From positions 1 through 39,777 of the forward strand of contig JAIOTO010000060.1 of the NCBI GenBank assembly GCA_021106765.1: 39,777 bases of DNA, read 5' to 3'. The notes beneath the pieces are model-generated. The model was not told the origin of the DNA and ran no database searches. It worked only from the letters and a program-made list of their open reading frames with translations. A program made the translations under genes and the position numbers. Origin of the DNA: Methanosarcinaceae archaeon. Its GTDB lineage: Archaea > Halobacteriota > Methanosarcinia > Methanosarcinales > Methanosarcinaceae. Numbering within the stretch: position 1 is the stretch's first letter; every line of letters begins with the position of its first letter. Shown one piece after another: positions 34,617-35,460 of the stretch.

Positions 34617-35399
34617 TTGGCACGAAAAGTACAGCGGAAATTGGATAAGTGGAAATCTAAGGAATGGTATAACATAGAAGCCCCTGCGTTCATCGGTCGT
34701 AACGATATTGGGACTACACCAGCAGATGACCCCCGTAATCTGATAGGACGGATTGTCATAACTACTGTGGGAGATCTTACTGGCGATTTCTCGAAGCACA
34801 ACATCAAGCTTCATTTTGAGATCAACGATGTAACAGGCAATGTGGCTAGCACACGATTCATGGGTCATGAGATAACAACGGATTATCTCCGATCCATCGT
34901 AAAACGTCAGACATCAAGGATCGATACGAACATCAGTGTTACCACTAAAGATGGAAGCAAAATGCGTATAAAGCCTATATCATTCACAGTGAAAAGGGCA
35001 CGCACCAGCCAGATCAAGGCTATCCGCAATGTAATGGATGAGATTGTAGTGAAACGTGCATCTGAACTTGGTTATGAACATTTCGTAGAAGAAGTGGTTA
35101 CCGGTAAGCTCGCAGCTAATATCTACAGGAACTCAAAATCCATATACCCGATAAGAAGGGTAGAGATCAGGAAATCAGAAGTGATAACCCAACCAATTGC
35201 AGCACCAGTTAAAACACCAACTGAAGCTCCAACTGAAGAGCCGATTGAAGCACCGACTGAAGTGCCAACTGAAGCACCAACTGAAGAGCCGATTGAAGTG
35301 CCAACTGAAGAGCCGATTGAAGTGCCAACTGAAGCACCAACTGAAGTTCCAACCGAAGAGCCGATTGAAGCTTCAACTGAAACATCGACCGAAGTCTGA
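34617..35399 (+). CDS. rps3ae: 30S ribosomal protein S3Ae (eS1) with repetitive acidic C-terminal tail
   Basis: Small-subunit protein at the mRNA exit/platform region. The first 195 or so residues are a normal archaeal S3Ae: [36 protein letters not shown], the [15 protein letters not shown] block and a typical end [13 protein letters not shown]. The protein is 260 aa, about 60 longer than usual. From T200 on the sequence is tetrad repeats of the form PTE(A/V/E) and PIE(A/V). The tail is strongly acidic, without Lys or Arg. The start is TTG at 34617 with GGAGG 7-8 bases upstream and no nearby ATG. The tail is in frame and ends at one stop before a clear terminator. Confidence 0.95.
35214..35395 (+). 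repeat. 12-bp-period coding repeat array in rps3ae
   Basis: About 15 imperfect copies of a 12-base unit of the type CCAACTGAAG(C/T)(A/T/G), alternating with a GCCGATTGAAG version, encode the S3Ae tail. Copies with GAGCCGATTGAAG recur at 24- or 36-base distances, giving a higher-order pattern. Such arrays change length by slippage and can vary between strains. Confidence 0.85.
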
Positions 35400-35408
35400 T
35401 TTTTTCTC

Positions 35409-35460
35409 ATATGAATATGGTGATAAAACGATCACTATATTCATATAAATTTTATTTTAG
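35409..35460 (+). terminator. Strong 16-bp hairpin terminator after rps3ae
   Basis: Bases 35409-35424 pair with 35431-35446 over 16 positions with a single G-T wobble, around a 6-base loop. An A/T stretch with TTTTATTTTA follows. It starts 10 bp after the stop codon. Confidence 0.7.

What the first reader, a model, noticed from the sequence alone, without database searches (positions are those of the whole stretch)
35197..35399. Ribosomal protein S3Ae with a PTE/PIE tetrad-repeat tail
About 60 extra residues of acidic tetrad repeats extend a ribosomal protein that normally ends near residue 200. The DNA array (period 12 bp) keeps an open frame with no Lys or Arg. Such a tail could reach from the platform near the mRNA exit, act as a flexible tether or be a salt adaptation. 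Array length should vary between strains.
Basis: partly seen in the sequence, partly recalled or inferred. Interest (0 to 1): 0.6.

Follow-up and report, generated by a model that had tools for sequence, protein, structure and literature searches.

The report
Ribosomal protein S3Ae with acidic repeat tail
A ribosomal protein of a methanogen-like archaeon carries a floppy, acidic tail built from 15 copies of a four-amino-acid repeat; relatives have grown acidic tails at the same spot from different repeats, so it is a real but minor variation of the ribosome surface whose function is untested.

Summary
ORF 34617-35399 is archaeal ribosomal protein eS1/S3Ae (PF01015, aa 5-193, E 4e-74). After the usual core end it runs 67 residues further: a short linker, then exactly 15 four-codon units (35217-35396, [PS][TI]E[x]) up to the stop codon. 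Period-12 self-match is 121/168 against 60±7 for shuffled codons. The tail is net -18, the array has no Lys/Arg and occurs once in the genome. AlphaFold gives an ordered core (pLDDT mostly above 90) and an unstructured tail (51-61).

Comparison changes the reading. Several genera of the family end within 5 residues of the core, yet tails of 27-77 residues, mostly acidic and repetitive, occur in six separate lineages with different repeat units. Homologous Methanococcoides arrays vary from 2.6 to 7.5 copies. Across 127 eS1 tails of at least 10 residues, 113 are net negative and 4 slightly positive, while uS4 tails in several of the same genomes are basic. Tail length does not follow salinity where genera could be named.

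Best reading: a disordered, charge-constrained C-terminus near the mRNA exit, lengthened by tandem duplication, with length largely tolerated. C-terminal low-complexity tails of ribosomal proteins are known (PMC6821194). New member of a known kind, modest interest.

The parts
34617..35195 (+). eS1/S3Ae conserved core (residues 1-193), TTG start with GGAGG just upstream
   Evidence: PF01015 E 4.3e-74 and NCBIfam NF003142; aligned to 50 archaeal homologues; pLDDT mostly above 90
35196..35216 (+). linker IAAPVKT with the only Lys of the tail; IAA aligns with the usual terminal VAA of relatives
35217..35396 (+). 15 in-frame 12-bp units coding [PS][TI]E[A/E/V/T]: acidic tail array, with a 24-bp higher-order unit PTEEPIEx
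   Evidence: PF04886 match; only array of its kind in the genome
35397..35399 (+). TGA stop directly after the last unit
35409..35446 (+). 16-bp hairpin flanked by T-rich runs, probable transcription terminator of the S3Ae gene
   Evidence: -18.7 kcal/mol, z -6.6

Best explanation
The gene encodes ribosomal protein eS1 (S3Ae) whose solvent-exposed, disordered C-terminus was lengthened by tandem duplication of an in-frame 12-bp unit (then of a 24-bp pair) to a 67-residue polyanionic tail. Shown: identity, array anatomy, predicted disorder, recurrent gain of mostly acidic repeat tails at the same place in relatives, and copy-number change among homologous arrays. Inferred: eS1 lies on the 30S platform at the mRNA-exit chamber, so the tail projects from there; selection keeps it free of basic residues so that it stays off rRNA and mRNA, while its length drifts with repeat gain and loss. 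On this view it works as a tolerated, charge-constrained bristle, at most tuning electrostatics or crowding around the exit site, rather than as a dedicated binding module.
For: Anatomy and non-randomness. Disorder: pLDDT 51-61 with no secondary structure after residue 191. Unrelated units in relatives: 12 bp here, 18 and 27 bp in Methanococcoides, 30 and 51/24-27 bp in the ANME-3 genus; Methanococcoides arrays 2.6-7.5 copies; ANME-3 G107 has 3.8 identical 30-bp copies. The tree needs at least 7 changes of the long-tail state. Family long tails beyond the first 10 residues: 966 residues, 327 D/E, 4 K/R. 113 of 127 tails of 10 or more residues are net negative, 4 slightly positive. In G005, G007, G009, G011, G014 and G081 the eS1 tail is acidic (-5 to -19) while the uS4 tail is basic (+7 to +9), so base composition alone does not set the sign. 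Array RNA is not unusually structured (z -1.2). eS1 location: PMC7531240.
Against: Within this array alone, absence of Lys/Arg/stop is expected about 42% of the time after 10 random substitutions, so selection on charge rests on the comparison among lineages. Sampled genomes are related, so tail counts are not independent. Repeated gain could also mean a positive function. No expression, proteomic or structural data for this organism were available, and the tail's position is inferred from homologues.
Confidence: 0.55

Rival explanations
1. Docking tail: the acidic tail is an arm that recruits a basic factor (initiation factor, RNA polymerase in coupled transcription-translation, or a ribosome-associated protein) to the mRNA-exit side of the 30S.
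For: Yeast uS2/RPS0A, also near the mRNA exit channel, has a disordered C-terminal tail that binds eIF3a and helps load eIF3 (PMC3390373); eIF3a contacts eS1 itself (PMC4151992). Acidic tails arose repeatedly at this site.
Against: Archaea lack eIF3 (general knowledge). Tail sequences and repeat units are not conserved between genera, and near relatives manage with about 3 residues.
Confidence: 0.2
2. Salt or environment adaptation: the tail adds surface acidity that helps the ribosome in saline cytoplasm.
For: Acidic low-complexity regions are enriched in halobacteria (PMC6821194). The order sampled from G145, which I take for haloarchaea from its sequences, has very acidic eS1 tails (-5 to -19).
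Against: Length does not track salinity: Methanosalsum 3 residues, Methanohalophilus 7-17, marine Methanococcoides 27-77, Methanomassiliicoccales 33-53; the presumed haloarchaeal tails are only 11-32 and not repeat-built.
Confidence: 0.12
3. Purely neutral repeat growth: slippage at a permissive C-terminus, with neither length nor charge under selection.
For: The C-terminus tolerates 2 to 77 extra residues among relatives; within this array the lack of basic residues is not significant.
Against: Sign of charge is consistent across lineages (113 of 127 negative) and opposite to uS4 tails in six of the same genomes.
Confidence: 0.1
4. Assembly artefact or untranslated/RNA-level element: the repeat is a mis-assembly, or acts as DNA or RNA rather than protein.
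For: Draft genome in 134 contigs; tandem arrays are prone to collapse, so the exact copy number could be off.
Against: Array is inside a 39.8-kb contig, units differ from each other, frame is intact to the stop, a terminator-like hairpin follows, and relatives with single-contig genomes have comparable tails (G005, G016, G019, G020, G081). RNA fold z -1.2.
Confidence: 0.03

Closest known systems
C-terminal low-complexity (mostly Ala/Glu) tails of prokaryotic ribosomal proteins (PMC6821194)
   Same: C-terminal, surface, Glu-rich, low complexity, on an abundant ribosomal protein
   Different: The passages read name S3, S24, L10 and L12 for archaea, not S3Ae; here Pro/Thr/Glu tetrads with a clear 12/24-bp tandem origin
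Acidic repeat tails of eS1/S3Ae in Methanococcoides, the ANME-3 genus (g14), g4 and g5
   Same: Same protein, same position, acidic, mostly repetitive, variable length
   Different: Different unit sequence and period; evidently separate origins
C-terminal tail of yeast uS2/RPS0A (PMC3390373)
   Same: Disordered C-terminal tail of a small-subunit protein near the mRNA exit
   Different: Different protein; binds eIF3a, which archaea lack
PF04886 PT disordered repeat
   Same: Profile match at aa 217-251 above the curated cut-off
   Different: A compositional repeat family; says nothing about function

Membership tests
Ribosomal protein eS1/S3Ae (PF01015) | Full-length match to the family profile above cut-off | tested here: met
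   248.7 bits vs cut-off 29.3, profile 3-191 of 191; NF003142 equivalog 283.8 vs 198 bits
Ribosomal protein eS1/S3Ae (PF01015) | Single copy in the genome, aligns along the whole core with homologues | tested here: met
   One match in G000; aligned with 50 homologues, up to 74% identity
Ribosomal protein eS1/S3Ae (PF01015) | Incorporated in the 30S platform | not testable with these tools
   Inferred from homologous structures such as 9o17 and 6sw9 and PMC7531240
C-terminal low-complexity tail of a ribosomal protein (PMC6821194) | Low-complexity segment at the C-terminus beyond the conserved core | tested here: met
   Residues 201-260 are 15 tetrads of 7 residue types in all
C-terminal low-complexity tail of a ribosomal protein (PMC6821194) | Disordered and at the ribosome surface | tested here: inconclusive
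   Disorder predicted; surface position not modelled on a ribosome
Factor-docking tail (RPS0A-like) | Binds a translation factor through the tail | not testable with these tools
   No binding data

The most novel reading that the evidence does not exclude
In Methanosarcinaceae the eS1 C-terminus is a repeatedly exploited, fast-evolving regulatory arm: different lineages independently built acidic tandem-repeat tails at the mRNA-exit site, and array copy number tunes translation initiation between species or strains.
Probability: 0.12. Interest if true: 0.65.

Novelty: new member of a known kind. Interest (0 to 1): 0.33.

Why it matters
If the charge constraint is real, it shows that a core ribosomal protein can gain and lose long disordered acidic tails quickly and repeatedly near the mRNA exit, in cultured genera such as Methanococcoides and in one Methanosarcina-group species where the tail could be deleted. 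It is also a caution for ribosomal-protein phylogenies and for reading 'extra' tails as eukaryote-like features.

Tried and rejected
Other copies of the array in the genome: none (PF04886 once; DNA search gave only a 17-bp chance match). RNA-level function: array fold not unusual (z -1.2). Within-array test of selection against Lys/Arg: no power (P about 0.42). Is tail growth general to ribosomal proteins here? uS4 of the window has an ordinary 24-residue end; long uS4 tails exist in g3, g4, g5, g7 and g13 but are basic. A uS2 check in the own genome gave only a split profile match and was not pursued. Literature for S3Ae tails in archaea: no direct hit; no proteomic support found for Methanococcoides burtonii S3Ae.

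Full report
OBSERVATION. ORF 34617-35399 reads as ribosomal protein S3Ae (eS1), 260 codons with a TTG start behind GGAGG. Pfam and NCBIfam place residues 2-204 in S3Ae, and Pfam adds a PT disordered repeat at 217-251. The tail beyond the core is IAAPVKT followed by 15 uninterrupted 12-bp units up to the stop codon. Codon 3 is GAA in 15 of 15 units, codon 1 is Pro or Ser, codon 2 is Thr or Ile, codon 4 varies (Ala, Glu, Val, Thr). A 24-bp pair PTEEPIEx recurs, which points to duplication at two scales. The periodicity is far beyond codon shuffles. The array is unique in the genome. A 16-bp hairpin with T-rich flanks follows the stop and is a probable terminator.

COMPARISON WITHIN THE FAMILY. 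The window lies in a 1.74-Mb, 134-contig draft genome (G000). On the eS1 core tree the window's genus groups with Methanohalophilus (99/92), near Methanosalsum. Extra residues after the core: 2-5 in g2, g8, g11, g12 and most g10; 7-17 in Methanohalophilus; 9-15 in g13 except G081 with 57; 27-77 in Methanococcoides; 51-60 in g4; 35-47 in g5; 60-72 in three of four g14. The long state needs at least 7 changes on the tree, one of them in an outgroup with a long branch. Repeat units differ between lineages in period and sequence, which argues against one ancestral array.

COPY-NUMBER VARIATION. The 27-bp Methanococcoides array has 2.6, 3.5, 4.5, 5.5 and 7.5 copies in G021, G016, G023, G015 and G022. 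The cores of G016 and G015 are identical in the tree while their arrays differ by two units.

CHARGE. Across 127 tails of at least 10 residues from Halobacteriota genomes, 113 are net negative, 10 zero, 4 slightly positive. In the family's long tails, beyond the first ten residues, 327 of 966 residues are D/E and 4 are K/R. The uS4 tails of six of those genomes are basic instead (+7 to +9), so genome composition does not dictate the sign. Within the window's array alone the absence of K/R is not significant. The counts are not corrected for relatedness. G081 is only weakly acidic (-5 in 57, PAPAS-type repeat), so acidity is a strong tendency and not a rule.

STRUCTURE AND PLACE. AlphaFold2 on a 51-sequence alignment gives a confident core and an unstructured tail from about residue 192. 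In archaeal 30S initiation complexes eS1, with uS11 and h26, lines one side of the chamber that holds the Shine-Dalgarno duplex (PMC7531240). The tail therefore probably leaves the ribosome on the platform side, but I did not model it on a ribosome.

MECHANISM. I favour a tolerated, charge-constrained bristle grown by tandem duplication (0.55). Docking is the main rival (0.2), with yeast RPS0A as a precedent (PMC3390373). Salt adaptation is weak because length does not follow salinity in named genera. Artefact is unlikely because comparable tails occur in single-contig genomes.

KNOWN OR NEW. C-terminal, surface, Glu-rich low-complexity tails are a described feature of ribosomal proteins (PMC6821194). 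The passages I read list S3, S24, L10 and L12 for archaea and not S3Ae. I therefore file this as a new member of a known kind; the recurrent gain at one site is the most interesting part.

Noticed in passing
L062:4001-4957: A Thermoplasmata S3Ae continues 126 residues past the core through a charged linker into a helix-hairpin-helix domain (PF14520, E 1.2e-14): an eS1-HhH fusion.
   Followed up: partly
L245-L255: uS4 in genera g3, g4, g5, g7 and g13 has long basic RGG/GRR-type C-terminal tails of 49-82 residues (24-29 in the window and the other genera sampled), opposite in charge to the eS1 tails.
   Followed up: partly
L103:226-975: One Methanosarcina-group genome (G081) has a 57-residue, nearly neutral PAPAS-type eS1 tail while its sister G097 has 15 residues.
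   Followed up: partly
window 35409-35446: Strong 16-bp A/T-rich hairpin just after the S3Ae stop codon, probable terminator (z -6.6).
   Followed up: yes
L183-L212: Genomes of the order of G145 (presumed haloarchaea) share a short acidic, non-repeat eS1 tail of the form EEVAAEEETSVDVDEEDVEV.
   Followed up: partly
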